DNA from: Bacteroidota bacterium
GTDB lineage: Bacteria > Bacteroidota > Bacteroidia > Bacteroidales > PUMT01
DNA: 40,952 nucleotides
Reading direction: 5' to 3'
Assembly: GCA_003554865.1 (NCBI GenBank)
Contig: PWHJ01000011.1
Span: 1-40,952 of the forward strand
In this document: positions 11,098 to 32,500 of the stretch, piece by piece
Position numbering within the stretch: the stretch's first letter is position 1
Layout: every line of letters starts with the position of its first letter
Translations under genes and position numbers: made by a program
Notes under the pieces: model-generated
The model's database searches: none
What the model was told of the DNA's origin: nothing
The model's input: only the letters and a program-made list of their open reading frames with translations

Positions 11098-11760
11098 ATG
11101 GGAAATAAGAAAAAATCAAAACTTGAGGTAAAAAATAACGGTGTTTCCACTAAAGAGGATTTCGGCTACTCCAAACTGGAGCAGTACCACCAGGAAACGA
11201 CCGAGAAGCTTGAACATCACTACAGGGAGATACTCAAGCTGCTGGGAGAGGATGTCAAGCGGGAAGGTCTTCAGGAAACACCGGTCAGGATCGCAAAAGC
11301 CATGCAATTTTTGACCCACGGGTATGATTTTGATCCGCGAAATATAATACGGGCTTCCAAGTTCAGGGAAGATTACCAGCAGATGGTACTTGTAAAGGAT
11401 ATAGAGATCTATTCCCTTTGCGAACACCATATGATACCTTTCTACGGAAAGGCGCATGTGGGGTATATACCTGACAAATATATAACGGGTTTGAGCAAAA
11501 TTGCCAGAGTAGTTGATGCCTACTCAAGAAGGCTGCAGGTGCAGGAGCGTATGACCACGGAGATCCGTGACTGCATTCAGGATACGCTTGACCCTATAGG
11601 GGTTGCGGTGGTTATTGAAGCCCACCACATGTGTATGCAAATGCGCGGTATACAGAAACAAAATTCGGTAACCACAACCTCGGCATTTACCGGTGCGTTT
11701 ATGAAGACCGAAAAGACCAGGGAGGAGTTTATACACCTGATCGGGACAAAGCTGCATTAA
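11098..11760 (+). CDS. folE: GTP cyclohydrolase I
   Basis: This 220-residue enzyme opens GTP to 7,8-dihydroneopterin triphosphate, the first step to folate and pterin cofactors. The zinc ligands are visible as C108 and H111 in [18 protein letters not shown] and C179 in [29 protein letters not shown] and the [12 protein letters not shown] tail are family signatures. A Lys-rich 25-residue N-terminal extension precedes the conserved helix, as in many members. ATG 11098 is the first start in frame. It is a stand-alone gene between the hldD divergence and fabD, with a 181-nt gap before fabD. Confidence 0.96.
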
Positions 11761-11782
11761 ACAAAGCTCTTTTACCACCGGT

Positions 11783-11799
11783 AAAACCTGCCGGTTTTT
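11783..11799 (+). terminator. Weak hairpin with T-run after folE
   Basis: AAAACC, loop TGCC, GGTTTT forms a 6-bp stem running into a T-run 23 nt after the folE stop. An alternative ACCGG/CCGGT pairing overlaps it. The stem is short, so the call is tentative. Confidence 0.35.
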
Positions 11800-11941
11800 C
11801 AGGTAAATTTTTGAAATATCAAAATAAACAAATAATTTGCAGCTTCTAATTACTGCATAATGATATGCCTTAAGCCGGCGCTGAAGTTTTTAATTTTAAC
11901 CGGCCTGAACTCAATAAAATATTAATTTCAATTCCAGTACA

Positions 11942-12826
11942 ATGAAAGCTTATGTTTTCCCCGGACAGGGGGCACAATTTCCGGGAATGGGAAAAGAGCT
12001 GTACGAAAATTTTTCCCTGGCCAAAGAGATGTTCAACCTGGCTGACGAAATACTGGGTTTCCGCATAACACAGCTCATGTTTAACGGAAGCGAAGAAGAC
12101 CTCAGACAAACCGGGGTAACCCAGCCTTCCATCTTCCTTCACTCTGTGATCCTGTCGAAAGTTATAGGTGATAAGTTTAACCCTCAAATGGTGGCCGGCC
12201 ATTCCCTGGGCGAATTTTCCTCGCTGGTTGCATCCGGTGCGCTCTCTTTTGAAGACGGACTGCGCCTTGTGCATGCACGGGCACAGGCAATGCAGAAGGC
12301 ATGCGAGGCTCAGCCTTCAACTATGGCTGCGGTAATCGGACTGGAAGATCATATTGTGGAGAATGTTTGCACTCAGCTGGAAGAAGTGGTTGTACCTGCA
12401 AATTACAATGCTCCCGGTCAAATAGTAATTTCCGGCTCAATGGAAGGGATCGAAGCGGCAACTGAAAAATTCAGGGAGCTGGGCGCGAAAAAAGTTATGA
12501 AGCTCAGAGTGGGAGGAGCATTCCACTCTCCACTTATGGAGCCGGCCAAAATAGAACTTGGCAAAGCAATTAAAAACACTACCTTCAGCAGTCCGGTATG
12601 TCCGGTTTACCAAAACGTTTCGGCAAAGCCTGTAACTGATCCTGAAAAAATAAAAGAAAATCTTGTGGCACAGCTCACCTCTCCGGTAAAATGGACACAA
12701 ACTGTTGAAAATATGCTTCACCACGGGGCATCTTCCTTTATTGAAGTTGGACCGGGCAACGTTTTGCAGGGACTGATTAAAAAAGTTGACAGAAAGGTGC
12801 CCACTGAAAGTGCATCAGCAGGATAA
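11942..12826 (+). CDS. fabD: Malonyl-CoA:ACP transacylase
   Basis: This 294-residue acyltransferase starts with the classic FPGQGAQFPGMG. It carries the nucleophile S88 in GHSLGEF and the catalytic H195 in GGAFHSPLM, with VGPGNVLQGL near the end. It loads malonyl groups onto acyl carrier protein for fatty-acid elongation in the cytoplasm. The length is close to that of E. coli FabD (309 residues). No other fab genes adjoin it here; it converges with the large minus-strand gene ending at 12990. No TAnnTTTG element is obvious in the 181-nt upstream gap. Confidence 0.95.
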   Translation: MKAYVFPGQGAQFPGMGKELYENFSLAKEMFNLADEILGFRITQLMFNGSEEDLRQTGVTQPSIFLHSVILSKVIGDKFNPQMVAGHSLGEFSSLVASGALSFEDGLRLVHARAQAMQKACEAQPSTMAAVIGLEDHIVENVCTQLEEVVVPANYNAPGQIVISGSMEGIEAATEKFRELGAKKVMKLRVGGAFHSPLMEPAKIELGKAIKNTTFSSPVCPVYQNVSAKPVTDPEKIKENLVAQLTSPVKWTQTVENMLHHGASSFIEVGPGNVLQGLIKKVDRKVPTESASAG

Positions 12827-12989: not shown

Positions 12990-15900
12990 CTACAAGGTGA
13001 AATCGTCATGTTTTCCGGGTTGATCACGCTTTACGGCATTGGGCTTAAAAATAACCCCTTTGTTGTTTTTCCCGTCAATCTGAATCTCCAGCGGATCCTT
13101 AAACCGTACATGGCGCACATGCTTGTCCTCGTAGTAAGTCTCCTGATTTTTGAGAAAATCAAGATCGTAATACCCGTCATCTAAATAGGGGTTGATGGTG
13201 AAATATCCAACCCTGAAAGATGTAAGATTCTGGAAAAAATGGGTGCCCTGACTGGGGTCAATCCTGTAATTTTCCAGCCCGGATTCAACTATCACCCTTG
13301 CCATAGATATCTGTCCCCACTTTATGGGTATACCCAGCCACGGATCTCTGGACCCCCATCTTCCGGGTCCGACCAGCACGTAATTCCTCCCCTCTTTGAC
13401 GAAACGATCATTGATCCTTTCTATCTCGCCGGCTATTTTATTGTTTTCCGATGGACTGAAATCGTCGGGCTTAACATATACTATGTCGCGTATATTGTTA
13501 ATTACACCGTTACCCAAAGCCTGATCGGAATAAATAATTGTATTGCCCAGTTCGATATTTCCCAGATCCAGGTCAACTTTCTGATCAGTCTGTACAATCG
13601 GTCTTATCTGCAAAAAATAGAACCTTTTGGGCTCACCCTTCGGCACATCCAGATTTACTGCAAATTCTATTTCAATGGGGTTGTTCATTTCACGCTGCCC
13701 TATTTCAAGAAGGGTCTGCAGCACTTCAGAAAGGGGAAAAGTATTGTGATTTAATATGTTCGAAAAGGTCACAATTTTTTTCCCCGGCCAGTCAACACCG
13801 TCGCGTATCATATTGTACTCAAAATCGTATGTTGAAGCAACATGCCTGAACGGAGGCTCATTAACGGCTTCACGGACATTGCGTTTCAAAATGTTCACAT
13901 CATCGTCAACCGATGGCACAAAACTCTCCACGTCAAGGTCAAGTGCATAGTATTTTTTCTGCGACTGGCGCAAAGCATCCTCAGGCGTTGAATGCTGAAG
14001 GAGCTTTTTGGGATATTTAGGGGAAAACCTCAGAGAGATACCCCCGTCTACAATAAGCTTACCCAGTCCGAAAGCTACATTTGCAATACCATCCTGGGGC
14101 TTTTCAGGGGCAATGGGATAAAAATTTATAGAGCGTGCCACACCCGACAGTGTCGGATAATACTTGCCGTTATTTGCCGACCCGCAAACCTCCTGCAATA
14201 CGATCCCCATCTTTTCCTCGTCGATAACATTGGATGTTGCAGTCATGTAAGCCTTACTTGTTTTAAAATAAACCGATGCGTAAACACACTTTATGGCATC
14301 GGTAAGCATCTTGATCATCAAGGTGCTGTCATCCACACGGGGTATCATATAGGTTGAGTAAATACCTGCAAAAGGCTGATAATGACTGTCTTCAAGGCGA
14401 CTTGATGAGCGTATAGCAACCGGCCTTTTCAGAACCGATATAAAAGCGTAAAGATCCTGATGGATCCGTCCGGGCAAACTTGCCCTGACAAATTCATCGA
14501 GTATCTTCTCATCGCTGGCATCTGACAATCCCACCCTGTAGAGGTCATTGTTCTCCATGAACTCATCAAATATGTCGGTTGACAAAACAACCGTACGGGG
14601 GATAGTTACCAGAACACCCGGGAACTTGTTGTAAATACTGTTCTTTTTAAGTATTGAATTAATAAATGCGAGACCGCGTGCCTTTCCCCCGATCGAACCG
14701 TCACCTATGCGCGAAAAAATCAGGTACTCGTCATATGTGTTTTTATCGAATTTTGCTATTACCCCCCTTCCTTTGTTTGAGCGGAAATTGGAAATGGCCG
14801 AAAAAAGGTATTGGCGAACCTCATCAAGAGATTCGAAATCCTCCAGACGCAAAAACTTGAACAATTGAGCAATCGGAAACAACGCCCTTGCATTGAGCCA
14901 CTTTGAAAAGTGATTCCTTCCGGCATGATAAGCAAGCGTGTCATCTGAAATGTTCAAAATAGCCTGCTGAAGGGTCTGCAGATCATTTGCCCTGCATACT
15001 TCCTTGAGAGTATATGGGTCGCGGAAAACAAACTCACCGAAAGAGAACTCCCTAATTATGAAGTTCCTCAACTCAATGGAAAGTGTTTTGGAGTATTTGT
15101 GTATAAACCCCGCCCCGAATTCATCGGCAACCTGTTCATATTCATTGTTGGATGACTGCAACAGGAAAGGCATATAGGGATCGTCATTCTTAACCTTCTG
15201 ACACAGCTTGACACCCGCCTGAGGATCGAGCTTTTTGTTTCTTTTGTAACTGATATCGGATATAACCCCGAGCAGGTTATATTTGTATTTTTCATATAAA
15301 GCAGCGGCATCTTCATAATTTGTGGCCAGCAGGATCTTCGGACGTCCTCTCATCCTGAGCATCTTCTGGTGCTCATTTAAGGCCTCCCTCATAAATTCGC
15401 GCGACTGCTTGAGGATTATCTTGTAAATGTTGGGCAGATAACTTGAAATATAACGGATCGAGTCTTCAACAAGAATTATGGTCTGAACCCCCACCGATTC
15501 CACATCATGATCCACGTTCATCCTGTCTTCTATAAGCTTTATTATGGCAAGCAATATGTCGGCATTGCCAAGCCAGCAAAAGACATAATCAATGGCGCTT
15601 GTATCCTCCCTCTTGATCTTCATTGATATTTCCCTGGAAAAATAAGTAAGCACAACAATGGGGATACCGGGATATTTTTCCTTCATCTCTCTTGCAAGCG
15701 AAAAGGTGTCAATATTCCCTACGCTGAGCATCAGTATTATCAGATCAATATTGTCATTTTCAAGCTTTCTGAAGGACTCCTCAGAACTGTTAGCTTTTAT
15801 AAAAATGGGGGGGTAGCGCAAATTAAGAGAAACATATTCATTGAATATCTGCTCGTCTATACGACCGTCCTCTTCAAGCATGAATGCATCATAATTGCTG

Positions 15901-16004
15901 CATACAAGCAGCACCTTATGGATACGCTTCTGCATCAACAGGTTGAAGGATGTATCATGAAACTCAAAAACGTCGATATCTTTCAATTGTTTAACTTCTT
16001 CCAT
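12990..16004 (-). CDS. Receiver-like / PEP-synthase ATP-binding domain protein (paralog 1)
   Basis: The protein has 1004 residues from ATG 16004. About residues 25-170 form a Rossmann-like domain (KVLLVCSNYDAF, IDLIILML, IPIVVLTYFS) resembling a degenerate response-regulator receiver. A second receiver-like domain follows to about 335, with ILVEDS, an insertion, RPKILLATNYEDA, VISDIS and a conserved Lys in FIHKYS. A PPDK_N-type ATP-binding domain spans about 430-800: GGKARGLAF (~438), VAIRSSSRLEDS (~526), EIEFAVN (~774) and FLQIRP (~795), so the usual Lys, Arg, Glu and Gln are present. The phospho-His swivel and PEP/pyruvate barrel of true PEP synthase are absent. The C-terminal 200 residues carry GPGRWGSRDPWLGIP (~877-891) and GTHFFQNLTS. 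I infer an ATP-dependent signalling or regulatory protein of unknown function. It is a tandem paralog of the next gene, 185 nt away. Confidence 0.75.
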   Translation of the reverse strand: MEEVKQLKDIDVFEFHDTSFNLLMQKRIHKVLLVCSNYDAFMLEEDGRIDEQIFNEYVSLNLRYPPIFIKANSSEESFRKLENDNIDLIILMLSVGNIDTFSLAREMKEKYPGIPIVVLTYFSREISMKIKREDTSAIDYVFCWLGNADILLAIIKLIEDRMNVDHDVESVGVQTIILVEDSIRYISSYLPNIYKIILKQSREFMREALNEHQKMLRMRGRPKILLATNYEDAAALYEKYKYNLLGVISDISYKRNKKLDPQAGVKLCQKVKNDDPYMPFLLQSSNNEYEQVADEFGAGFIHKYSKTLSIELRNFIIREFSFGEFVFRDPYTLKEVCRANDLQTLQQAILNISDDTLAYHAGRNHFSKWLNARALFPIAQLFKFLRLEDFESLDEVRQYLFSAISNFRSNKGRGVIAKFDKNTYDEYLIFSRIGDGSIGGKARGLAFINSILKKNSIYNKFPGVLVTIPRTVVLSTDIFDEFMENNDLYRVGLSDASDEKILDEFVRASLPGRIHQDLYAFISVLKRPVAIRSSSRLEDSHYQPFAGIYSTYMIPRVDDSTLMIKMLTDAIKCVYASVYFKTSKAYMTATSNVIDEEKMGIVLQEVCGSANNGKYYPTLSGVARSINFYPIAPEKPQDGIANVAFGLGKLIVDGGISLRFSPKYPKKLLQHSTPEDALRQSQKKYYALDLDVESFVPSVDDDVNILKRNVREAVNEPPFRHVASTYDFEYNMIRDGVDWPGKKIVTFSNILNHNTFPLSEVLQTLLEIGQREMNNPIEIEFAVNLDVPKGEPKRFYFLQIRPIVQTDQKVDLDLGNIELGNTIIYSDQALGNGVINNIRDIVYVKPDDFSPSENNKIAGEIERINDRFVKEGRNYVLVGPGRWGSRDPWLGIPIKWGQISMARVIVESGLENYRIDPSQGTHFFQNLTSFRVGYFTINPYLDDGYYDLDFLKNQETYYEDKHVRHVRFKDPLEIQIDGKNNKGVIFKPNAVKRDQPGKHDDFTL

Positions 16005-16189
16005 AACATTTAAAAATTATCTGTATAATTACCCAATCATCCCGCAAAGGACAAAATAATCATTATAAATATGCAGGGTCAGAGGATTAAAAAAACTGAA
16101 TTTATTTAACTTTAACATGAATTTAGCTTAACCTTAATTTAATATTATGTAAATTGCTGACTATTCTTAACGCGAATGCTTCAAAAAAA

Positions 16190-19100
16190 TCACATATTGT
16201 TTTGGGCTAATATTACAGCCATGCCTTTTTTCCCGTCCATGAGTATTTCAACAGGCTGTTTGAACCTAATGTGTTTTATATATTCGGTTTCAACTAACGT
16301 TTCCTGTTTTTTAAACGCGTCAAACCTGACAAAATCGCCGGGTGAGGTGTGGTTGACCGAAAGGTAGCCGACATTCATCGATGTCACGTTGTGAAAAAAG
16401 TGAGAGCCAAGCGATGCGTCCAAAGGAAAATCATCCATGCTCATTTCGACAATAACCTTTGCATTTGATATTTGAGGCCAAACAACCGGGATACCGATGA
16501 ACCTGTCTCTTGTCCCCCACCTGCCGGGCCCGATAAGCACATATTTACGATTTTCCTTCAGCATTTTAGAATTTCGCTCCTCTATCTGCGAGGCAATTTC
16601 AAGGGTTTTATGCTTATCGAAGCTCTCGGGTTTAACGAAAATAACATCCTTTATGTTGTCGATCCTGCCGTTTCCCATGCTTTTGCTGCTGCGAAGCAAA
16701 ATATTGTCACTTTCAAGCTTCCCGGTGTCAATACTGTAGTCGCTTTCACCCCCGACAAGGGGTTTAATCTGCAGAAGGTAAAACGAGGGTAACTTGTTTC
16801 TGTCACGCTTCAAATCGACCGCAAACTCTATTTCCACATCACTTCCAAGTGCCTCCTTTACCACATCCAGAATAATATTGAGTGTTTGGGGCAAAGGGAC
16901 ATAATCATATTTAAGAATATTGGCAAAGTTTACTATACGAAGCCCCCGGTCATCCAGGCCATGAATTATGCGCTCATTTTCAATGTCATACACCGAAGCA
17001 CAATGTTTTAGTGTTCCGTCCTTTTCAGCTTCAGATACATCGCATCTTATCAGCCCGGCATCTTCACCCTCAAGCAGATTGACCTTCTTTTTCTCCATAT
17101 TTACCGCATAAAACTGAACCTGTGAATTTTTATACTGGTCTTTGGGTGTGCTTATATCCAGTTTGGGATGGGCAGGTGAAAAACGGTATGCTTTTTCGCC
17201 TTCAACAACATACTGACCCAGTCCGACCGCCATCACAGCATAACCTTCATCCGGTTTCATGTGCGAGACAGGATAAAAATTCCGGGATTGTGCCGTACCG
17301 CTGATATGCGGATAAAACCGGCCGTCAAACCTGTTGCCGGCAACCTCCTGTAATACGATTGCCATTTTTTCCTCTTCTATCTTATAATTGATGGCCTCAA
17401 AATATGTTCGGGCACTGTCAGAAAAGATTGAAGCATAAACCAGTTTGATAGCATCTGTAAGTTGCTTAAACCTCTCGTCAAAAGAGGAATGGTTGTTTGG
17501 CAAGAGATATGTTTCAAATATCCCCGAGAAAGGATGCATCAAAGAATCTTCAAGCAGGCTTGAAGATCGCACGGCAATGGGCGCGGTGATCTTTTTAAGA
17601 TATACTTTAAGTCTTTTTACCAGGTTGTAGCTTAGCTCGCTTTGCAGAAAAAGTTTTTTAACATCCTCATAATCGAGTCCGTTATACACTTTGTCATGCA
17701 GCTTGTTCTTCTCCAGAAATATGTCAAATTCGTCAGTTCCAATTATTACTGTACGCGGGGTCCTGATCTCCAATCCGTCTACCTGCTCGGAAAAACGGAA
17801 ATTATATATCAAATTGTTGATAAAGGCAAGTCCCCTGCCCTTTCCTCCAAGTGAGCCGGATGCAAAACTTACAATATTTGACTCCTCCAGTATTGCACTC
17901 TCCTCAAAATTGACAATCTTGCCCATATCCTGTTCCTTACGGTGCTTCCTGATAATATCTATCAGGAACTGGCGCATTTCTTCGGGGTTTTTGAAATCCG
18001 ATACCCGCAAAGGGTTGATTATTTTTGCGATCTTTACCTCACCCCTTGCCATAAGCCAAAGGGAAAAATGGTTCTTTACCCCGTGATAAACAAGAGACTC
18101 TTCAGGGACAGTTTTAAGGTATGACTCAAACTCCCTCATTGACTTGGCAACAGCTATCTGTCTCCCTTGGTTGTCACGGTAGATGAAATGGCCGAAACCA
18201 AGATAGTAATTTATAAAGCTTTTAAGATCCTGCAAAAGTGTCTCGGAATTCTTGTTTATAAAAATCGACTTCAGCTGATGGGCAATCTTTGAGTTTTCCG
18301 GCTCGGAAGACTGAAGAACCGTGGGGAGGTTATCTATCTGTGACTTAACATAACTCAGCAGCTCTACGCCTGCATTCGGATCGGGCTTGCCATCCCTTGG
18401 GAACCTTACATCTGAAATAACACACAGCATGTATTCCTGATACCTGTTGAAAATATTAATGGCGCTTTCGAAATCGGTTGCCAGCAGTATCTTGGGTCGT
18501 CCTCTGAGTTTGAGTACCTTATAGAGCTCATCGGTATTCACATCTTCAATAAGATGCTTGGTCTGCTCCAGAACTATCGAGTAAACCATTGGCAAATAGC
18601 GGGAGTAATATTTGGGTGCATCCTCAACAAGGAGAATAATCTTTGTAAAACCCTTGGCAGTATCATTTTCCACATTAACCTTATCCTCCAGCATTTTTAC
18701 CATTGCAAAAAATATCTTGGAATCGCCGTTCCAGACAAAAACATTGTCAATATTGTCAAGCTTCCTTTTGTCCCTGTTAAAAATTTCCATGTCATTGTTA
18801 TTGTTCAGCAACAAAAAGACAGGTATGTAGGGATACTCGCTTTTGATCTTTTCGCTCAGAAGAATCGGGGTTTTCTTATCAACCCCCATCATAACAATAA
18901 CCAGGTCATAATGCTTGGAATGAAGTTCGCTGAAAGCTTCTTCAATTGTTGAAACACCTGTAACGCGCGGCAGGGAAGTGAGGTTCAGCTCATGATACTG
19001 TCCCAGCATATGATCCGAAAACCTTCCGTCCTTTTCAATGCTGTAGGCATCGTAAAGTGTTGCAACCAAAAGTATTTCCTTCACCTTGAATGGCATCAGG

Positions 19101-19660
19101 TCGTGGAAAAGATTTCTTTCCGCATTGTGGCGGTTAAGGAATTTTTGAAGCAGCTGACGGCTGCTGAGCGACTTTGTGCTTGCCTGTTCAACCGTTGACT
19201 GGCGATCCTTCTCCATTTTTGTTTTCATCATGATCGAGGATGCCTTTTGACTGTTAATATAGCCTGTAATAAGATTGGCTATATTGTCAATCAGCTCCCG
19301 TTCCTCTTTAAGAAAGGGACCCTCATCCATTTCCGTAAACTCACGTGTATAGTAGACTTCAATGATGCCGCGGCTGTTATCAATTGTCTCGAAAATCTGA
19401 CTCTGCCTCCACGATGTTTCCCTGAAGCCCGGACTTTTATATTCCTTGCCCTCAAAAATAATACGGGATACTGCAAATTCCGGATATTGCCATGCATCGG
19501 GAAGTATGAGTGCAATCTGGTGAAGGGTCTCCTCAACAGATTTCTGCTGCTTCAAAATATCGGTTGTCTTGTTTATACAGGCAAGCTCTTTTCTGCGCTC
19601 CTTGCGTTCCTTGAGCAGTTCCTGCAAACTGCTTTTATCTGTTTTATTTTCCATAAACAT
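16190..19660 (-). CDS. GAF / receiver-like / PEP-synthase ATP-binding domain protein (paralog 2)
   Basis: The protein has 1156 residues from ATG 19660 (a second ATG at 19654 is equally possible). It begins with a coiled segment and a GAF-like domain at about 25-150 (LPDAWQYPEFAVSRIIFEG, GIIEVYYTREF, DEGPFLKEERELI), as found in sensor kinases, but no kinase follows. Two receiver-like domains come next, the second with ILLVEDAPKYYSRYLP, RPKILLATDFESA, VISDVRFPRDG and FINKNS. The PPDK_N-type domain has GGKGRGLAF (~603), IAVRSSSLLEDS (~692), EIEFAVD and LLQIKP, and the C-terminal domain has GPGRWGTRDRFIGIP (~1041-1055) and GSHFFHNVTS. It lacks the phospho-His and PEP-binding domains. The order matches paralog 1 plus an added GAF sensor, which points to gene duplication with sensory divergence. 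It diverges from the universal-stress gene at 19840. Confidence 0.75.
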   Translation of the reverse strand: MFMENKTDKSSLQELLKERKERRKELACINKTTDILKQQKSVEETLHQIALILPDAWQYPEFAVSRIIFEGKEYKSPGFRETSWRQSQIFETIDNSRGIIEVYYTREFTEMDEGPFLKEERELIDNIANLITGYINSQKASSIMMKTKMEKDRQSTVEQASTKSLSSRQLLQKFLNRHNAERNLFHDLMPFKVKEILLVATLYDAYSIEKDGRFSDHMLGQYHELNLTSLPRVTGVSTIEEAFSELHSKHYDLVIVMMGVDKKTPILLSEKIKSEYPYIPVFLLLNNNNDMEIFNRDKRKLDNIDNVFVWNGDSKIFFAMVKMLEDKVNVENDTAKGFTKIILLVEDAPKYYSRYLPMVYSIVLEQTKHLIEDVNTDELYKVLKLRGRPKILLATDFESAINIFNRYQEYMLCVISDVRFPRDGKPDPNAGVELLSYVKSQIDNLPTVLQSSEPENSKIAHQLKSIFINKNSETLLQDLKSFINYYLGFGHFIYRDNQGRQIAVAKSMREFESYLKTVPEESLVYHGVKNHFSLWLMARGEVKIAKIINPLRVSDFKNPEEMRQFLIDIIRKHRKEQDMGKIVNFEESAILEESNIVSFASGSLGGKGRGLAFINNLIYNFRFSEQVDGLEIRTPRTVIIGTDEFDIFLEKNKLHDKVYNGLDYEDVKKLFLQSELSYNLVKRLKVYLKKITAPIAVRSSSLLEDSLMHPFSGIFETYLLPNNHSSFDERFKQLTDAIKLVYASIFSDSARTYFEAINYKIEEEKMAIVLQEVAGNRFDGRFYPHISGTAQSRNFYPVSHMKPDEGYAVMAVGLGQYVVEGEKAYRFSPAHPKLDISTPKDQYKNSQVQFYAVNMEKKKVNLLEGEDAGLIRCDVSEAEKDGTLKHCASVYDIENERIIHGLDDRGLRIVNFANILKYDYVPLPQTLNIILDVVKEALGSDVEIEFAVDLKRDRNKLPSFYLLQIKPLVGGESDYSIDTGKLESDNILLRSSKSMGNGRIDNIKDVIFVKPESFDKHKTLEIASQIEERNSKMLKENRKYVLIGPGRWGTRDRFIGIPVVWPQISNAKVIVEMSMDDFPLDASLGSHFFHNVTSMNVGYLSVNHTSPGDFVRFDAFKKQETLVETEYIKHIRFKQPVEILMDGKKGMAVILAQNNM

Positions 19661-19839: not shown

Positions 19840-20964
19840 ATGGATAAAAAAGTTGTAACTCTTACCACAAACACCTATTCCAGGGCATATATGCTCAAGG
19901 GCCGCCTTGAATCCGAAGGCATTGAGTGCTTTTTAACAAACGTAAATCTGATACAACCTAATGTATCATATGGTGTTAAAGTAAGGATTTTTGAGGAAGA
20001 CCTCCCTAAAGCCTCAGAAATACTTGAGGAAATCGAGAAAGAATACGGCAGTGAAGATATTGACAGCAGCAAGGACATATATAAGGTGGAGAGGATACTT
20101 GTGCCGGTTGACTTTTCAGATTATTCAATGAATGCTTGTGTTTTTTCGCTGCACCTGGCATTCGTTCTGAAAGCAAATATAAAGCTTTTCCACGCCTTCT
20201 TCAATCCAATGATGGATGCTATGACTTTCCCCGATGCATTCACATACCAGTCAAACATGGCCGAAGTTTACCAGGAGCTGGAAAAAAAAGCTAAGGCCGA
20301 TATGGCTACTTTTGTGAAAAAGCTAAAAAAATATGCAAAAGAACAAAATCTGGGAGATATAAGCATTACCAAATCGCTGGTGGCAGGTCAGCCATACGAT
20401 GAAATAATATCAATGATAAAATCTTACAAGCCCGGGGTTGTAATCCTTGGAACAAGGGGAGAAGGAAAGAAGCCTGACGAGATGATCGGGGGTGTTACGT
20501 CAAAAATTCTTGAAAGCCCCGTTATTGATATTCCCATACTGGTGGTTCCACAAACTGCAAAAATCAACAGGATTGGACATGTAAACATTTTGTATGCAAC
20601 CAACTTTGACAAGACAGACTATGAAGCGATCCGCAAGCTGATGGCGGTTGTCTCAAATCTTGAAGTCAGTATCTATTGTGTTCATTTCAGCACAGATGAG
20701 AAAAACATATCATTGAACAAGGCGAACATGGAGGAGCTCAGAAATTATTTCAGGCAGGCATATAAACAATATACCGTGGAATGTTCAATTATTGAAAGCA
20801 ATGATGTTATACCTGCAATGGAAAATTTCATCAGGGAAAAAGAGATTGACATTATCTCCATCACTCACAAAAAACGAAATATGCTTTACCGTCTTTTCAA
20901 CCCCGGTATTGCTAAAAAACTGCTCTTTAGAACAGACAAGCCTGTCCTGATTTTCCACAGTTGA
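19840..20964 (+). CDS. DUF2007 plus tandem universal stress protein domains
   Basis: The protein has 374 residues. Residues 1-70 match the DUF2007/putative signal-transducing domain (VVTLTTNTYSRAYMLKGRLE, then GVKVRIFEEDLPKA), a small ferredoxin-like fold. Two Usp domains follow, about 83-235 and 245-373. The first keeps a nucleotide-loop-like pattern, GTRG then nine residues then GGVTSKIL, so it may bind ATP. The second (ISITHKK... PVLIFHS) lacks the Gly-rich loop and is probably structural. It is cytoplasmic, with no membrane segment. It is divergently placed, 179 nt from the GAF/PPDK_N gene, so a shared control region is plausible. It could be a stress or energy-state sensor; its partner is unknown. 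Confidence 0.85.
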   Translation: MDKKVVTLTTNTYSRAYMLKGRLESEGIECFLTNVNLIQPNVSYGVKVRIFEEDLPKASEILEEIEKEYGSEDIDSSKDIYKVERILVPVDFSDYSMNACVFSLHLAFVLKANIKLFHAFFNPMMDAMTFPDAFTYQSNMAEVYQELEKKAKADMATFVKKLKKYAKEQNLGDISITKSLVAGQPYDEIISMIKSYKPGVVILGTRGEGKKPDEMIGGVTSKILESPVIDIPILVVPQTAKINRIGHVNILYATNFDKTDYEAIRKLMAVVSNLEVSIYCVHFSTDEKNISLNKANMEELRNYFRQAYKQYTVECSIIESNDVIPAMENFIREKEIDIISITHKKRNMLYRLFNPGIAKKLLFRTDKPVLIFHS

Positions 20965-22322: not shown

Positions 22323-23060
22323 TTATAATTTGGTCTTTTGAAATTTTTTCACTACACCTCCAAACCCCCCGGCTCCAGGAATACCCTCTTCAAAAGCTGT
22401 ACCTACTACTGCAACATCAGCTCCTGATGAAAAAACACTTTCCAGGGTGTTCATATCCTTTATCCCTCCTCCAACTATAAGTGGGATACTGATATTTTCC
22501 TTAACCTCCTTTATCATCTTCACGGGTACCGGCTCATTAGCGCCACTACCAGCTTCCATGTATATAACTCTCAATCCCAGCATTTCACCGGCAACCGCCG
22601 TTGCGACTGCCAACTCAGGTTTAGCGGACGGTATCGGTCTTGTATTGCTCATATATTCAACAGCCGTCGGTTTGCCATCGCCCACAAGCATATAACCTGT
22701 GGGAATTATCTCAAGTCCGCTTTCCTTTAACATCATTGCACTTACCACGTGATTGCCTATCAAAAATTCAGGATTCCTTCCCGAGATGAGACTTAACAAA
22801 AGTACAGCATCGGCATTTGATGCCAGTTGAAGAGGACTGCCGGGAAAAGGTACTACAGGCAGGGATATTCTGCTTTTAAGCATTTCAACAACAGGCCCGA
22901 CAGAAGATTTTACCAGACTGCCGCCGACAAAGATCATTGATATACCGGATTGTTCGACAGCCGAACACAAACCGGAAAGCCTGCCGCTGTCAAACTTGCA
23001 GGGATCAACAAGTATAACCAGCTTCTTGCCGTTATCTTCCAAAATTGAGCGGTATACCAT
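22323..23060 (-). CDS. Geranylgeranylglyceryl phosphate synthase family protein
   Basis: The protein has 245 residues from ATG 23060. A longer frame to 23123 would overlap the upstream gene, whose TAA ends 8 nt before this ATG, so the shorter form is chosen. It has the TIM-barrel family blocks VDPCKFD, GGSLV, VPFPGSPLQLASNADAVLLL, GNHV, PTGYMLV, YMEAGSGA and IVGGGI. The family joins a prenyl diphosphate to sn-glycerol-1-phosphate, making the ether bond typical of archaeal lipids; members also occur in Bacteroidetes and, as PcrB, in Bacilli. Prenyl length cannot be read here. It is the last gene of the leftward run, translationally close to the phosphopantetheinyl transferase, and ends at the bidirectional terminator. 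Confidence 0.9.
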   Translation of the reverse strand: MVYRSILEDNGKKLVILVDPCKFDSGRLSGLCSAVEQSGISMIFVGGSLVKSSVGPVVEMLKSRISLPVVPFPGSPLQLASNADAVLLLSLISGRNPEFLIGNHVVSAMMLKESGLEIIPTGYMLVGDGKPTAVEYMSNTRPIPSAKPELAVATAVAGEMLGLRVIYMEAGSGANEPVPVKMIKEVKENISIPLIVGGGIKDMNTLESVFSSGADVAVVGTAFEEGIPGAGGFGGVVKKFQKTKL

Positions 23061-23068
23061 AAATTTAT

Positions 23069-23701
23069 TTATTTGCAGCACCAAACTATAAAATAATTGC
23101 CATACCTGAAATATTCCAAACAAAACTCTTCATTATTCTGGTTTTTACAAACCCTCCCGGTTAACTTACCCTCGTCGCCGGGCTCAAAAGGGTCTATGTA
23201 AATATGTTTACGTAAACTTATATCCTGTTTGTCACATATTTTAAATATTGCCTCCTTTGCACACCAGTAAAGGTAGATATGGTAATCCTCTCCGCTTAGG
23301 CGGGCCTCCTGCTTCTCCTTTTGATTGAGAAATTTATTGGCAAGAGGGCCGATTTCGTTTGAAATATACTCAAGATCTACACCAACCCTGCACTGTTTGC
23401 TCAACAGTATAGATGTCAGCTTATGTGAATGTGAAATACTTATGTTATACTTACGGTCATTTAAAAAAGGCTTGCGTTTTCCGTTGTAAAATATTTTCAC
23501 ATCCGGACCTGTCATTTCATAAAGTAATCTTCTTACGGTCAGCCACTCCAGCTTTCTGTCATAATTCCTGAAACTGTTAAGGGTATCTATCTCTTCCTTG
23601 CTGAGATTCAATCCGGAATAAAGTGTAAAAAAATCCTCTTCAGTTTCCCACAATCCCAGCAAACAGTTGGAATTAACATACTCTTTAAAAAGAAGACCCA
23701 T
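23069..23701 (-). CDS. 4'-phosphopantetheinyl transferase (Sfp/AcpT superfamily)
   Basis: The protein has 210 residues from ATG 23701. It carries the two magnesium/CoA-binding motifs of the family: GVDLE at 107-111 (D109, E111) and WCAKEAIFK at 146-154 (E150). NISISHSH at about 86-93 is the usual ISHS block. It transfers phosphopantetheine from CoA to a Ser of a carrier protein, making holo-ACP or holo-PKS/NRPS carriers. The length fits the Sfp-like branch, although sequence outside the motifs is quite divergent. It lies between gldD (172-nt gap) and the GGGP-synthase gene (8-nt gap), so it is probably co-transcribed with the latter. Confidence 0.88.
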   Translation of the reverse strand: MGLLFKEYVNSNCLLGLWETEEDFFTLYSGLNLSKEEIDTLNSFRNYDRKLEWLTVRRLLYEMTGPDVKIFYNGKRKPFLNDRKYNISISHSHKLTSILLSKQCRVGVDLEYISNEIGPLANKFLNQKEKQEARLSGEDYHIYLYWCAKEAIFKICDKQDISLRKHIYIDPFEPGDEGKLTGRVCKNQNNEEFCLEYFRYGNYFIVWCCK

Positions 23702-26524: not shown

Positions 26525-29500
26525 ATGAACAATTCAAAAAAAAAACTATATATCGGTTTTATTCTCCGGATATATAAAAACACACTTCATATAACTTCCG
26601 GAAAAGCTCTGTTAAGGCTGCTACTGACCTTGCTTTTGCCACTCTTTTTTACGACAGTTACCCTTAAAGCCCAGGACGAGGGAACATATAAATTTTCCAA
26701 AAATAGTGTTATAGTTGAAACAAGTAAAGCAAACCAGGGAGAAGGCCAACCGGAGTTCATGGAAAGCCCGTCAGCGAACAATACCGGCGAAGAACCCGAG
26801 CCCGACCGGACTGATATAATTTGTGCCAATGAAGTTTACGTTGAGGCGACCGGTGTTTCACAGGCAGGTAAATGGAAACTTGTCGAAGGTTCGGGAGAAT
26901 TTAGTCCCGATGACAGGCGCGAAACAACAATATCAGGTATAAAAGATAGTTATAACCTATACAAATATGAAGCTTCCAATGCGACCTTCATTTACGAAGT
27001 CTATTACCAGGAGATTTTTGATTACACTTTAGACGGTCCCTCAACCTACTGTGAAGGAGAAACCGGTGTAACACTCACCCTTTCGGGATCCCAGGAAGGG
27101 GTTGACTACACTCTTTACATGGACGGAAATGATATTATTACTAAACAAGGAACGGGCGACCCTATTGAGTTTTACGAATTATACGAAGGAACCTACCATG
27201 TGGAAGGGGTAGCAACTTTTGATTCCGATTGCCCTGTAATGGTGACCGATGAAATTACAGTGAGCGAAGTCTCCAATCCCCAGATATTTGACCTGAGCAC
27301 TCCCGACAACCAGTATTGTGAAGGCTCCGGGGCCGAGCTTATACTCTCGGGTTCCCAGTCAGGGGGAAACTACATTTATCAGCTTACCTGCAGTGACTCA
27401 GGACCGGCCGGCTCTCCCAGAACCGGCACCGGGGATGAAATAGTATGGACAGACATACAGGAGGGAAGCTATTATGTGACGGCAATCAATACAGACGGGG
27501 GGTGCGAGAGCATCATGAACAACACGGTATATATCGAAGAGCTGGCTGCACCGGAACCCTTTAACCTCTCTCCCTCATCAGCAGCATACTGTGCTGATGA
27601 AGAAGGGGTGACGCTTACCCTTTCATCCTCGGAAGAAAACACTCAATACCAGCTTGAACGATACGGTGTTGAAGAAGGCCCGAACGTGGAGGGTGACGGA
27701 AGTCAGCTCACGTGGCCCGACAAGGGCAACGGGACCTACACCGTTACGGCAACCGGCGAAAACGGCTGCACCTCGGGTATGGGGAATTCTTCAACCATAA
27801 CCCGGATATCCCTGCCGCAGGTTTTTGAGCTGACATCCTCTGCCGATTACTATTGCGAAGGGGCCCCCGGTGTTACACTTACCCTTTCGGAATCGGAAAC
27901 GGGAGTTAGTTACAGGCTAATAAGAAACGGGAGTCCGGTTGGAAGCAAAGCGGGGACCGGCTCACCCATAACATGGTCGGTAACAGAGGGAGAATATCTC
28001 GTGGAGGCTGTAACTGACGACCCGGAAGCTTGCTCGCGTCTTATGACAGGTAACCCTGAAATTGAAATGATACCCTCTCCCCCGGCATCGGCCGGAGCGG
28101 ATGCTGAAATCTGCGAAGGGGAGACCACCGGGCTAAACGCAACCGGCGGGGTTTCATATGAATGGGAACCGGGGGAAGGACTCAGCGAAACAACAATAGC
28201 CAATCCGCAGGCATCACCCCTGGCAACTACAGAATATACCGTAACGGTAACCGATATATACGGATGTACGGCTTCAGATGAGGTCACTGTAACGGTCAAC
28301 AGCCTGCCGGATGCCGACGCGGGCACCGATAAAGAGATATGCCGGGGCGGTCAGGTGCAGCTCAATGCAACCGGGGGCAGCAGCTACCAGTGGTCTCCTT
28401 CATCTTCTCTGAACGATCCGGAAATTCACAACCCTGTTGCCACACCATCTTCTACAACGGAATATACCGTTGCCGTTACCAACGATGCCGGGTGCATGTC
28501 AACCGACAATGTTACTGTAACTGTAAATCCCCTGCCATCGGTAAATGCCGGCGCAAACGCCTCCTTGTGCGAGGGAGAAAGTGCGGAAATAACTGTATCG
28601 GGAACCGCCGACCAGTACAGCTGGAGTACAGGTGAAACTGGCGAAAGTATTACGGTTACCCCCACCTCAAAAACCAGCTACAGCGTTACGGGCACTTATA
28701 CTGAAACGGGCTGCCAGGCATCCGATCAGATGGAAGTGGAAGTAAACCCTTTGCCTGTGGAATTTGCAGTTACAGGCGGAGGGGAGTTCTGTGAAGGAAG
28801 CGGCGGAGTGGAAACGGGACTTAGCGGGTCCTCTGAAGATGTAAACTATGAGCTCTTCAGGGACGGCAGCTCAGTAATGTCAAAAAACGGCACCGGGGAA
28901 GCCATATCTTTCGGAATGCATAATGCTGCGGGCATTTACACGGTATATGCAACGAATATGAACACTCTTTGCTCAGCCGGCATGCCAGGGGAAGCTATAG
29001 TGGAGGAGATACGCCTGCCCGGTCCGGCACAGTCAATTACAGGCAATAAAACAACTTGCCCCGAAACAACCGTTACTTACAGCACAGCTGAAATAAACCG
29101 TGCCGATCATTACGAGTGGACCCTTCCCCCGGGTGCATCTTTAATGGAAGGAGGCGGAACAAATGAGATAACGGTTTTCTTCCCCTCCGGGGCACAATCA
29201 GGAACACTTAGTGTAAAAGGTGTTAACGAATGCGGCGAAGGAACGGCCGCCTCGTCAGAAATAACAGTGAGCCCGCTGCCGGGTCCTGCCGGAGAGATAA
29301 CCGGTGAATCGGAGTTGTGTGAGAATACAATGAATATCGTTTATAATATTGAGCCGGTGGAGAACGCCTCCTCTTACCTCTGGGAAGTGCCTGCCGGTGC
29401 GGAAATTTACAGCGGACAAGGCACGCCGGAGATAATCGTTGATTTTCCCAAAGGAAGCAGCCCGGGTTATATAACCGTAACCCCGCTCAACAGTTGCGGT

Positions 29501-32500
29501 ACAGGGGAATCGCACTCCCTTAGTGTGACTGTCACCCCTTTGCCCCACCTGCAACTGAATCCTGTTGATGAGGATATCGACTGTTCAGGAAGCACTGTAA
29601 CCCTTTCCGCCTACTCCAATGACGATGTAGAGTGGTGGTGGACCGCCCATGAGGGGGGACAGATTGCGGGCAGTCAGGATGAAAGCACCACCGGGGCCGA
29701 AAAAGCGGGAACTTACAGAGTAACGGCCACGGCCGAAGGATGTTCATCATCCGGGGAGCTGACAGTTGTAAAGGATGATGCTGCACCCGAAAATGTATCG
29801 ATAACACTTCCCGACCCGTCAATAATTACATGTTCAAATGATGAGCTGACACTTGAAGCCTCAACCACCAGCACTTTTCCGGTGAGTTATCAATGGACGG
29901 CAAGTGCCGGCGGTCATATCGTCTCGGGACAAAACACCTCCTCACCCGTTATAGGCAGCGGAGGAAACTACCAGGTAACGGTAAAAAACCTTGAGACCAG
30001 CTGCACAACGGTTAAATCAGTTACAATAGAGGAAGACACTGAAAATCCCCATATATCTGTAGTAACTCCGGCAGAAGAGAAAATTTCCTGTATAAACGAA
30101 AGTGTTCAGCTTTCAGGCTCATCTAACACTTCAGGGGTTATGTATGAGTGGACCGGCCCGGGTAACATCTCAGATCCGCATTCGCAGAATCCTGTTGTTG
30201 ACGCAGCAGGAACCTACACGTTGACGGTCACCGCCCCAAACGGATGCTACTCAACTGCAAATGTGCAGGTTCAGACCGACTATGAGGAACCCCATGTATG
30301 GGTTGATACCAACCCCGGAACCCTCAACTGCCAGGAAACAACGGTTAAACTAAACGGCTCTTCCTCGACCGAAGGAGCCACGTTGCTTTGGACCGGACCG
30401 GGAGTTGTTTCGGGTGAGACGGGTGAAACACCTACAGTTAACGAACCCGGCGATTATACCCTCACGGCAACACATCCTGTCAGCGGCTGCACGGCTGAGG
30501 CAACCGTAACAGTGATCGAGGATATACAGTCTCCTTCAGTTGACTTTCCCCTGGCCCCGTCAGATATAACCTGCAGCAATCCCACGGTCAACATAGAAAG
30601 TGAAACGTCGGCCGAAAATGCAGTATACCAGTGGTCAACAGCCGACGGGGAAATATCCTCGGGTGAAGAGCTTCCGACGGTTACCGTTGAGGCAGGGGGA
30701 ACATACACTCTAACTGTAACCGATGCCGACAATCACTGCTCTGCCTCAGAAAGCATTGAAGTGGGCGAAAATCTCACCGAACCCGGTGTAACAATCGAGC
30801 CTCCGGCTACTGTAACATGCAACGATCCCTCCATAGAGCTGTCAGGCTCATCACCAACTGAACCAGTTAATGTTCAATGGGAAACTGCTGACGGGCACAT
30901 ACAATCAGGCTCAACTACCTTCACTCCTGCTGTAACAAGCGGGGGCACTTACAATGTAGCGGTTACCGACCCCTCCAACGGCTGCGTTTCACAAGCATCT
31001 GTATCTGTGGAAGAAGACAAAAGCACACCTTACATCACCATAAACAGTAATCCTGATCCGCTTAACTGCAGGGACACCGAGGTCACGCTCAACGGATACG
31101 CGGCAGATGCATCACTGCTGTGGACAGGTCCGGATGAAGCTGTAATAAAAGATGAGACGACCTCAACACCTACGGTTGACACTCCCGGAACTTACACTCT
31201 GGAGGCTACAGGCGATAACGGCTGCACATCTGCAAAGGATGTGGAGGTGGAACAGGAGACAGATGTACCGGAAGATGTTGAAATACTTGAATTTGAACAA
31301 TTAAGCTGCGGCAACAGTGCCACATCGCTAAAGGCCGTCTCCTCCACAACAGGCACCACATATACCTGGGAAGCTTCAGGCGGGGGCAACATAGTTTCCG
31401 ATCCGGAAAACGATGAAATAACAGTTGATGCACCGGGCACCTATACTGTAAAAGCAGCCCACCCCGATACATGGTGTACCGAAAGTGTAAGCATAACGGT
31501 TGAATACCTTGATGATTCGCCGGTCATTACATTTCCTGCAGAAATGCCTTCCACAATAACCTGCTCCAACCCGGAGGTAACACTTCAGTCATCAGTAGAG
31601 CCCGAAGATGCTATATTACAGTGGGAAGGACCGGGTACTATCGAGGATGCAAACAGCACTTCACCCACGGTTTCGGTAGCCGGGGAATACACGCTTATTG
31701 CAACCCATCCGGAAACCGGGTGCATCACTTCCAAAACAACTGAGGTCAAAAGCGACCTCTCTGCGCCCGATGTAGAATTTAACGATCCGGGCACAGTAAC
31801 ATGCTCCACACCCGAGATTACAATTACCGCAACCTCATCAGCCTCGCAGGTTACCCCTTACTGGTCAACCAACGACGGCTCTGTAAAGGGAAGCACCGGA
31901 AATATGTCGGTTACCGTTACAAGCGAAGGCACATACACTCTGAGTCTGATTGATGAAGGAAACGGATGCGAAACGGTGGAAAGCATATTTGTCCATGAAG
32001 ACAAAGAAGCCCCGGAGGTATATGTTGACTCATCCCCGCCGGATATTACCTGCAGCAGCGGCACAGTGGAACTCTACGGCACAAGTCCGTCAACCGGCGC
32101 AACTTACCACTGGGAAGGGCCCGGAAACATTCAGGATGAAACCACCCAAACGCCCACAGTTGATCTTGCAGGTGATTACACGCTAACTGTAACCGGCGGC
32201 TCCAACGGATGCTCTGCAGAAGCCATTGTAACGGTAGGGGAAAACAAATCCGACCCACAAACCCCTCAGATCGTAACACCCGGACAACTCTCGTGCAACA
32301 CCGAATGGGTGGAGCTTACCGTATCCCCCTACATTGAAGGTGTTGATTACCTGTGGACAACCACGGGAGAGGGAACCATAATAAACGCAGACACAGATGC
32401 TGCTACGGTCAACGAACCGGGAGAATACACGGTAACGGTAACAGACAGGGAAAACGGCTGCACCAGTTACAGTAGTGTAAATGTTACAATGAACGACCAG

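What the first reader, a model, noticed from the sequence alone, without database searches (positions are those of the whole stretch)
12990..19660. Tandem receiver-like proteins with an orphan PEP-synthase ATP-binding domain
Two adjacent same-strand paralogs combine degenerate receiver-like domains with a PPDK_N-type ATP-binding domain. The ATP-site residues look kept (GGK, RSSS-EDS, EIEFAV, LQI-R/K-P). The phospho-His swivel and PEP/pyruvate barrel, which PEP synthase needs for its reaction, are missing. One paralog has an added GAF sensor. A sensing front end on an orphan dikinase ATP domain suggests ATP-dependent signalling rather than gluconeogenesis. This is the best candidate here for an undescribed system.
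Basis: partly seen in the sequence, partly recalled or inferred. Interest (0 to 1): 0.7.

Follow-up and report, generated by a model that had tools for sequence, protein, structure and literature searches.

The report
Receiver-linked dikinases paired with glutamate dehydrogenase
Two side-by-side genes encode ATP-using phosphate-transfer proteins with signal-receiver front ends; relatives are found in most Bacteroidales, including every complete Bacteroides genome checked, and very often sit beside the gene for glutamate dehydrogenase, so they probably control this key nitrogen enzyme by a mechanism nobody has worked out.

Summary
The two tandem paralogs are real: P1, 12990-16004 (-), 1004 aa; P2, 16190-19660 (-), 1156 aa. 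Three points change. (1) The phospho-His domain is probably present. The C-terminal ~170 residues have no Pfam family but fold confidently (pLDDT 88), resemble the swivel domains of rifampin phosphotransferase, PPDK and PEP synthase, and carry an invariant His (P1 H922, P2 H1087) at the matching helix start. (2) Only the first receiver is degenerate; the second keeps the full E/D-D-S-K site. (3) Relatives are strongly linked to glutamate dehydrogenase (GDH): 68 of 84 family genes across the phylum lie within 6 kb of a GDH gene. P1 pairs with one GDH clade and P2 with the other. In Bacteroides, P1 can lie just downstream of the NADP-type gdhA, where a trans-acting gene affecting GDH activity was reported in 1996. 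Best explanation: a receiver-gated dikinase-type phosphotransferase that sets GDH activity. The link to GDH is shown; phosphotransfer and GDH as target are inferred. A GDH Tyr/Phe position that tracks the family is a lead, not proof. This genome's own GDH genes lie elsewhere.

The parts
12990..16004 (-). P1 gene, 1004 aa: REC1(degenerate)-REC2(intact)-DUF5752-like-PPDK_N-swivel-like C-terminal domain
15510..15923 (-). P1 receiver 1 (aa 28-165), degenerate: M92 at the Asp position, invariant W144 at the Lys position
   Evidence: Pfam Response_reg 7.7e-10; conservation; model
15039..15488 (-). P1 receiver 2 (aa 173-322), complete site E180/D181, D250, S284, K303
14769..15035 (-). P1 DUF5752-like helical segment (aa 324-412)
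   Evidence: weak PF19027 match in P1, over cut-off in P2; helices in model
13593..14723 (-). P1 PPDK_N ATP-grasp domain (aa 428-804): K441, R532, E778/E780, Q799, R801
   Evidence: PF01326 2.5e-37
13035..13547 (-). P1 divergent phospho-His-swivel-like domain (aa 820-990): GPGRWG 879-884, SxG[ST]HFF 918-924
   Evidence: no Pfam family
13239..13241 (-). P1 His922 codon, invariant, proposed phospho-carrier
   Evidence: 90/90; position
16190..19660 (-). P2 gene, 1156 aa: extra N-terminal sensor-like region, then the same architecture
19166..19660 (-).
   Evidence: alignment A5; GAF not confirmed
18668..19084 (-). P2 receiver 1 (aa 193-331), degenerate (M257, W310)
18194..18646 (-). P2 receiver 2 (aa 339-489), complete site E346/D347, D417, S451, K470
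16754..17881 (-). P2 PPDK_N domain (aa 594-969): K607, R698, E943/E945, Q964, K966
   Evidence: PF01326 2.3e-38
16196..16708 (-). P2 divergent swivel-like domain with His1087 (codon 16400-16402)

Best explanation
P1 and P2 are regulatory dikinase-type phosphotransferases that control glutamate dehydrogenase at the 2-oxoglutarate/ammonia junction. ATP binds the PPDK_N domain and its beta-phosphate is passed to the invariant His (P1 H922, P2 H1087) on a divergent swivel domain, as in PEP synthase, PPDK and rifampin phosphotransferase. The enzyme lacks the substrate domain of those relatives and instead delivers the phosphate to a protein partner, most likely its paired GDH, changing GDH activity. 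The intact second receiver, gated by an upstream histidine kinase, and in P2 the N-terminal sensor-like region set when this happens. Each paralog serves its own GDH isoform. Shown here: architecture, conservation, GDH linkage and isoform pairing. Supported by model: the swivel fold. Inferred: phospho-His formation, GDH as acceptor, receiver gating, and the sign of the effect (activation preferred because of the reported trans-acting requirement downstream of gdhA).
For: GDH linkage: 68/84 family genes, in 40/49 genomes across the phylum, lie within 6 kb of a GDH gene, against roughly 1% by simple arithmetic. In Bacteroidales 23/73 P1 and 23/38 P2 genes do so, and in Bacteroides 42/75. In unbiased neighbour clustering GDH is first (32/79 loci); the next family has 10/79, the beta subunit of a 2-oxoacid:ferredoxin oxidoreductase. 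Pairing: in the GDH tree the five labelled P2-divergent GDHs lie in one clade, and nearly all P1-adjacent GDHs of the Bacteroidia lie in the other. Relatives without any receiver (580-aa core; ~1060-aa core plus nucleotidyltransferase) also lie beside GDH, and a Ca. Delongbacteria locus has family-family-GDH-family in a row, so the PPDK_N-swivel core carries the association. Swivel: C-terminal model pLDDT 87.9; best structural rows are RPH 756-866 (Z 7.0), pyruvate kinase C-terminal domain (Z 7.0), PPDK and enzyme I; RPH's swivel is residues 767-865 with His825 (PMC4844700). The full model superposes P1 428-988 on PEP synthase 8-467 (Z 25.4, 359 residues) and 412-986 on PPDK 7-505. [quoted passage not shown] In 11 of 75 Bacteroides genomes P1 lies convergent, within 6 kb, just 3' of the 444-aa GDH, which passes NCBI's NADP-specific GDH model. 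GDH position 362: in a fresh sample 31/43 genomes with the family had a Tyr-type GDH, against 0/25 robustly lacking it.
Against: In the window's own genome the two GDH genes are on another contig (G000:C174), not beside P1/P2. Many Bacteroidia without the family still have GDH, so it is accessory. HHalign finds no sequence similarity between the C-terminal domain and true swivel domains, Foldseek alone gave no significant match, and Z of about 7 alone can be a common arrangement. The Tyr/Phe signal is weaker after correction for relatedness (7 against 1 independent pairs, p=0.07) and was first picked from a scan of all columns. GDH with Phe is also common in genomes with the family. Identity of the 1996 trans-acting gene with P1 was not checked in B. 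thetaiotaomicron itself.
Confidence: 0.5

Rival explanations
1. Internal phosphorelay: ATP phosphorylates the swivel His, which phosphorylates Asp250 of the protein's own intact receiver; the phosphorylated protein then acts on GDH by binding, without covalent modification of GDH.
For: Receiver 2 is complete and invariant, and a His-to-Asp transfer within one chain needs no outside acceptor.
Against: Relatives without receivers keep the PPDK_N-swivel core and the GDH linkage.
Confidence: 0.18
2. Small-molecule dikinase like rifampin phosphotransferase or HpeHI, phosphorylating a metabolite of the glutamate/2-oxoglutarate node.
For: ATP domain closest in structure to rifampin phosphotransferase (Z 26); such dikinases are widespread (PMC12167813); some relatives follow a 2-oxoacid:ferredoxin oxidoreductase operon.
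Against: No domain corresponding to the RIF-binding or pyruvate-binding domain lies between or after the ATP and swivel domains; the 580-aa relatives have only the two core domains.
Confidence: 0.18
3. One reading: an orphan ATP-binding domain without a phospho-carrier, acting as an ATP or energy-charge sensor driven by the receivers.
For: No PF00391 match and no HHalign similarity to swivel domains.
Against: Swivel-like fold in the expected place with an invariant His; the catalytic ATP-site residues needed for phosphotransfer are kept.
Confidence: 0.1
4. A true PEP synthase or PPDK with a hidden barrel.
For: Annotation models of PEP synthase give partial hits.
Against: Those hits cover only the ATP domain and score far below the cut-offs; no barrel residues remain after the C-terminal domain; a full PPDK exists elsewhere in the genome.
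Confidence: 0.02

Closest known systems
Rifampin phosphotransferase RPH-Lm (PDB 5HV1, 5FBS, 5FBT, 5FBU; PMC4844700)
   Same: PPDK-type ATP-grasp domain; C-terminal swivel fold; Lys and Arg of the ATP site; a His at the start of the swivel helix
   Different: RPH has a ~430-residue rifampin-binding domain between the two and no receivers; its swivel belongs to the canonical type with the GGxT[SC]HAA motif, here it is SxG[ST]HFF
PEP synthase and pyruvate phosphate dikinase
   Same: Order ATP-grasp then swivel; one superposition covers both domains
   Different: No PEP/pyruvate barrel here; receivers at the N terminus; swivel unrecognisable by sequence
HpeHI/PpsAB two-component dikinases (PMC12167813)
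   Same: Show that the ATP-grasp domain and the swivel can serve non-pyruvate acceptors
   Different: Two subunits and a phenol-binding domain; no receivers; no reported link to GDH
[quoted passage not shown] PMC4395418 aspartate-less receivers with PPDK effectors)
   Same: Almost certainly the same protein family
   Different: The passages read list the architecture only; they do not mention the intact second receiver, the swivel-like domain or GDH
Trans-acting gene(s) downstream of gdhA in Bacteroides thetaiotaomicron (Baggio and Morrison 1996, cited in PMC4539542)
   Same: Position next to gdhA and effect on GDH activity; P1 is found there in related Bacteroides
   Different: Identity with P1 not verified; paper not held here
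GlnE/GlnD-type control of nitrogen enzymes (from general knowledge)
   Same: Idea of a dedicated modifying enzyme for a nitrogen enzyme; some relatives here carry a nucleotidyltransferase domain
   Different: Different enzyme core and different putative target

Membership tests
PPDK_N (PF01326) ATP-grasp proteins | Match above Pfam gathering score | tested here: met
   129 and 133 bits against a cut-off of 27
PPDK_N (PF01326) ATP-grasp proteins | ATP-site residues Lys, Arg, Glu/Glu, Gln kept | tested here: met
   K441, R532, E780, Q799 invariant in A3; own PPDK shows the matching GGK, VRS, DLE and LLQTR motifs
PEP synthase / PPDK | PEP-utilizers mobile domain PF00391 by sequence | tested here: not met
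   No match in P1, P2 or 61 C-terminal domains
PEP synthase / PPDK | Swivel domain by fold | tested here: inconclusive
   Z 5.6-7.0 alone, and joint superposition with PEP synthase at Z 25.4 over 428-988; no sequence similarity
PEP synthase / PPDK | PEP/pyruvate barrel PF02896 | tested here: not met
   No match; protein ends after the C-terminal domain
PEP synthase / PPDK | Catalytic His phosphorylated by ATP | not testable with these tools
   Invariant H922 is a candidate only
Response regulators | Receiver with Asp phosphoacceptor, acidic pair, Ser/Thr and Lys | tested here: met
   Receiver 2: E180, D250, S284, K303 90/90, D181 86/90. Receiver 1 fails.
Response regulators | Phosphorylated by a cognate histidine kinase | not testable with these tools
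   No histidine kinase gene identified as a partner
Small-molecule dikinases (RPH, HpeHI) | Separate substrate-binding domain | tested here: inconclusive
   No extra domain between PPDK_N and the swivel-like domain; the N-terminal DUF5752-like segment is of unknown function
GAF-domain sensors (P2 N terminus) | GAF HMM or structural match | tested here: inconclusive
   2/14 homologs at E 0.18 at best; no convincing PDB match

The most novel reading that the evidence does not exclude
A PEP-synthase-derived, receiver-gated protein kinase that phosphorylates glutamate dehydrogenase, possibly on the Tyr that replaces Phe just before the PGKAANAGG motif, forming a new class of post-translational control of nitrogen metabolism in most Bacteroidales.
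Probability: 0.15. Interest if true: 0.92.

Novelty: new variant of a known kind. Interest (0 to 1): 0.7.

Why it matters
The C-terminal module is in 275 of 325 Bacteroidales genomes, and P1 is in all 48 complete Bacteroides genomes checked, yet the proteins are easily misread as PEP synthase. A dedicated switch for glutamate dehydrogenase would explain how these abundant gut bacteria set ammonia assimilation, would add a new use of the swivelling dikinase machine (acting on a protein), and offers a concrete candidate for the trans-acting gene downstream of gdhA reported in 1996. Each step can be tested with a few point mutants.

Tried and rejected
PEP synthase function: rejected (no barrel; separate PPDK). 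Sequence-based proof of the swivel: tried with Pfam, HHalign and column-shuffled controls, no signal. Foldseek alone: no significant match for the C-terminal domain in PDB or viral models. GAF in P2: not confirmed. A GDH residue that cleanly separates genomes with and without the family: none found; the best column is Tyr/Phe 362, retested on fresh genomes: still associated, but the relatedness-corrected test gives p=0.07. One of the discordant 'lacking' genomes (G048) has genus-mates with the family, so it may be an assembly gap. Genes immediately beside P1/P2 in the window (FabD, FolE, USP) as functional partners: FabD and FolE recur in 9/79 loci, probably lineage synteny. Reading the 1996 paper: not held; no held paper was found that describes the mechanism.

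Full report
What is there. The window holds two same-strand ORFs, P1 (12990-16004, 1004 aa) and P2 (16190-19660, 1156 aa). Pfam finds PPDK_N in both far above its cut-off, Response_reg in P1 (sub-threshold in P2), and DUF5752 in P2 (weak in P1); it finds no PF00391 and no PF02896. In close relatives P2 and P1 are usually tandem with gaps of a few bases up to about 70 (13 of 16 loci that hold P2), so they probably form an operon.

Receivers. Across 90 family members receiver 1 has lost the Asp (mostly Met) and the Lys (always Trp), but receiver 2 keeps E180, D250, S284 and K303 without exception and D181 in 86 of 90. The AlphaFold model of P1 (pLDDT 85.4) places these at the usual strand ends, and receiver 2 superposes on solved receivers at Z up to 14.9.

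ATP domain. K441, R532, E778/E780, Q799 and R801 (Lys in P2) match the ATP-site residues of PPDK, as seen against the complete PPDK of the same genome. In RPH, Lys22 and Arg117 are implicated in the first phosphotransfer (PMC4844700); that K441 and R532 are their counterparts is read from the motifs.

The C-terminal domain. Residues ~815-990 match no Pfam family, and HHalign sees no similarity to real swivel domains. Yet the region holds some of the most conserved motifs of the protein: GPGRWG at 879-884 and SxG[ST]HFF at 918-924, with His922 invariant in 90/90. AlphaFold on 61 sequences gives pLDDT 87.9. Foldseek alone is not significant, but the structural second look ranks RPH residues 756-866, the pyruvate kinase C-terminal domain, PPDK and enzyme I at or near the top (Z 5.6-7.0); RPH's swivel domain is residues 767-865 with catalytic His825. 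In the full-length model P1 428-988 superposes on PEP synthase 8-467 (Z 25.4, 359 residues) and P1 412-986 on PPDK 7-505, so both domains match in order. His922 sits at the start of the helix that follows a strand and loop, where swivel domains carry their His. I take this as a divergent phospho-His swivel; residue-level equivalence was not measured.

A wider family. In other classes of the phylum the same PPDK_N-swivel core occurs as a 580-aa protein without any receiver, and as a ~1060-aa protein with a P2-like N-terminal region and a C-terminal nucleotidyltransferase domain. A Ca. Delongbacteria locus has an NTase-type member, a P1-like member, GDH and another P1-like member in a row.

Link to glutamate dehydrogenase. 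Across the phylum 68 of 84 family genes, in 40 of 49 genomes, lie within 6 kb of a GDH gene, where about 1% would be expected by simple arithmetic. In Bacteroidales it is 23/73 for P1 and 23/38 for P2, and in Bacteroides 42/75. Clustering all neighbours in 79 loci without a prior guess puts GDH first with 32 loci; the next is the beta subunit of a 2-oxoacid:ferredoxin oxidoreductase with 10. A GDH tree has two main clades: GDHs divergent from P2 lie in one, and nearly all GDHs next to P1 in the Bacteroidia lie in the other; three convergent GDHs of the Bacteroides type and two Lutibacter GDHs near P1 belong to the first clade. In the window's own genome both GDH isoforms exist but lie together on another contig, so the link here rests on relatives.

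A possible target site. A scan of all GDH columns for a difference between genomes with and without the family gave one standout, position 362 (B. pyogenes numbering), Tyr or Phe just before PGKAANAGG. In the alpha clade 28 of 29 GDHs from genomes with the family have Tyr and 13 of 14 from genomes without it have Phe; in the beta clade it is 21 Tyr to 17 others against 1 Tyr to 8 Phe. On fresh genomes 31 of 43 with the family had a Tyr-type GDH and none of 25 robustly lacking it did. Phylogenetically independent pairs run 7 to 1 in the expected direction, p=0.07. This is a lead only.

Earlier knowledge. [quoted passage not shown] The title of Baggio and Morrison 1996, seen in the reference list of PMC4539542, says that B. 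[quoted passage not shown] the paper itself is not held. From memory, its abstract describes a ~3-kb downstream segment that restores GDH activity in E. coli, and the P1 coding region is 3.0 kb. In 11 of 75 Bacteroides genomes P1 lies convergent and within 6 kb, just downstream of the 444-aa GDH, and the B. pyogenes copy of that GDH passes NCBI's NADP-specific model. I consider P1 the likely gene but did not verify it in B. thetaiotaomicron.

Mechanism. Most likely ATP phosphorylates His922 and the swivel hands the phosphate to a protein partner at the GDH node, with receiver 2 and the P2 N-terminal region as gates. Association with GDH is well shown. The swivel is likely. Phosphotransfer to GDH is inferred and competes with an internal His-to-Asp relay and with a small-molecule dikinase. 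Distribution: the module is in 275 of 325 Bacteroidales genomes and all 48 complete Bacteroides genomes tested, while genomes lacking it usually keep a GDH, so it is an accessory controller, not an obligate part of GDH.

Noticed in passing
L160:2308-5487, L163:2846-6022, L168:2343-5081, L129:75-3149: Relatives fuse the PPDK_N-swivel core to an intact-looking nucleotidyltransferase (GS...DxD), usually next to GDH; suggests nucleotide transfer may be part of some versions.
   Followed up: partly
L056, L061, L077, L091, L096 upstream of P2 or P1: Genes for a 2-oxoacid:ferredoxin oxidoreductase directly precede P2-P1 (or P1) on the same strand in several Bacteroidales, another enzyme of the 2-oxoacid node.
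   Followed up: partly
GDH position 362 (L099:12011-13342 numbering): Tyr/Phe alternation before PGKA[AV]NAGG that tracks presence of the family.
   Followed up: yes
window 19840-20964 (+): DUF2007 followed by universal-stress-protein domains in one protein, divergent from P2.
   Followed up: no
window 26525-39742 (+): A 4405-aa ORF of many similar immunoglobulin-like repeats with a PKD-like region and a gliding-type C terminus, judged by eye; probably a giant secreted adhesin.
   Followed up: no
window 22323-23123 (-): ORF resembling geranylgeranylglyceryl/heptaprenylglyceryl phosphate synthase, judged by eye.
   Followed up: no
window 11098-12826 (+): FolE and FabD genes beside P1; the same neighbours recur in 9 of 79 loci, likely lineage synteny.
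   Followed up: partly
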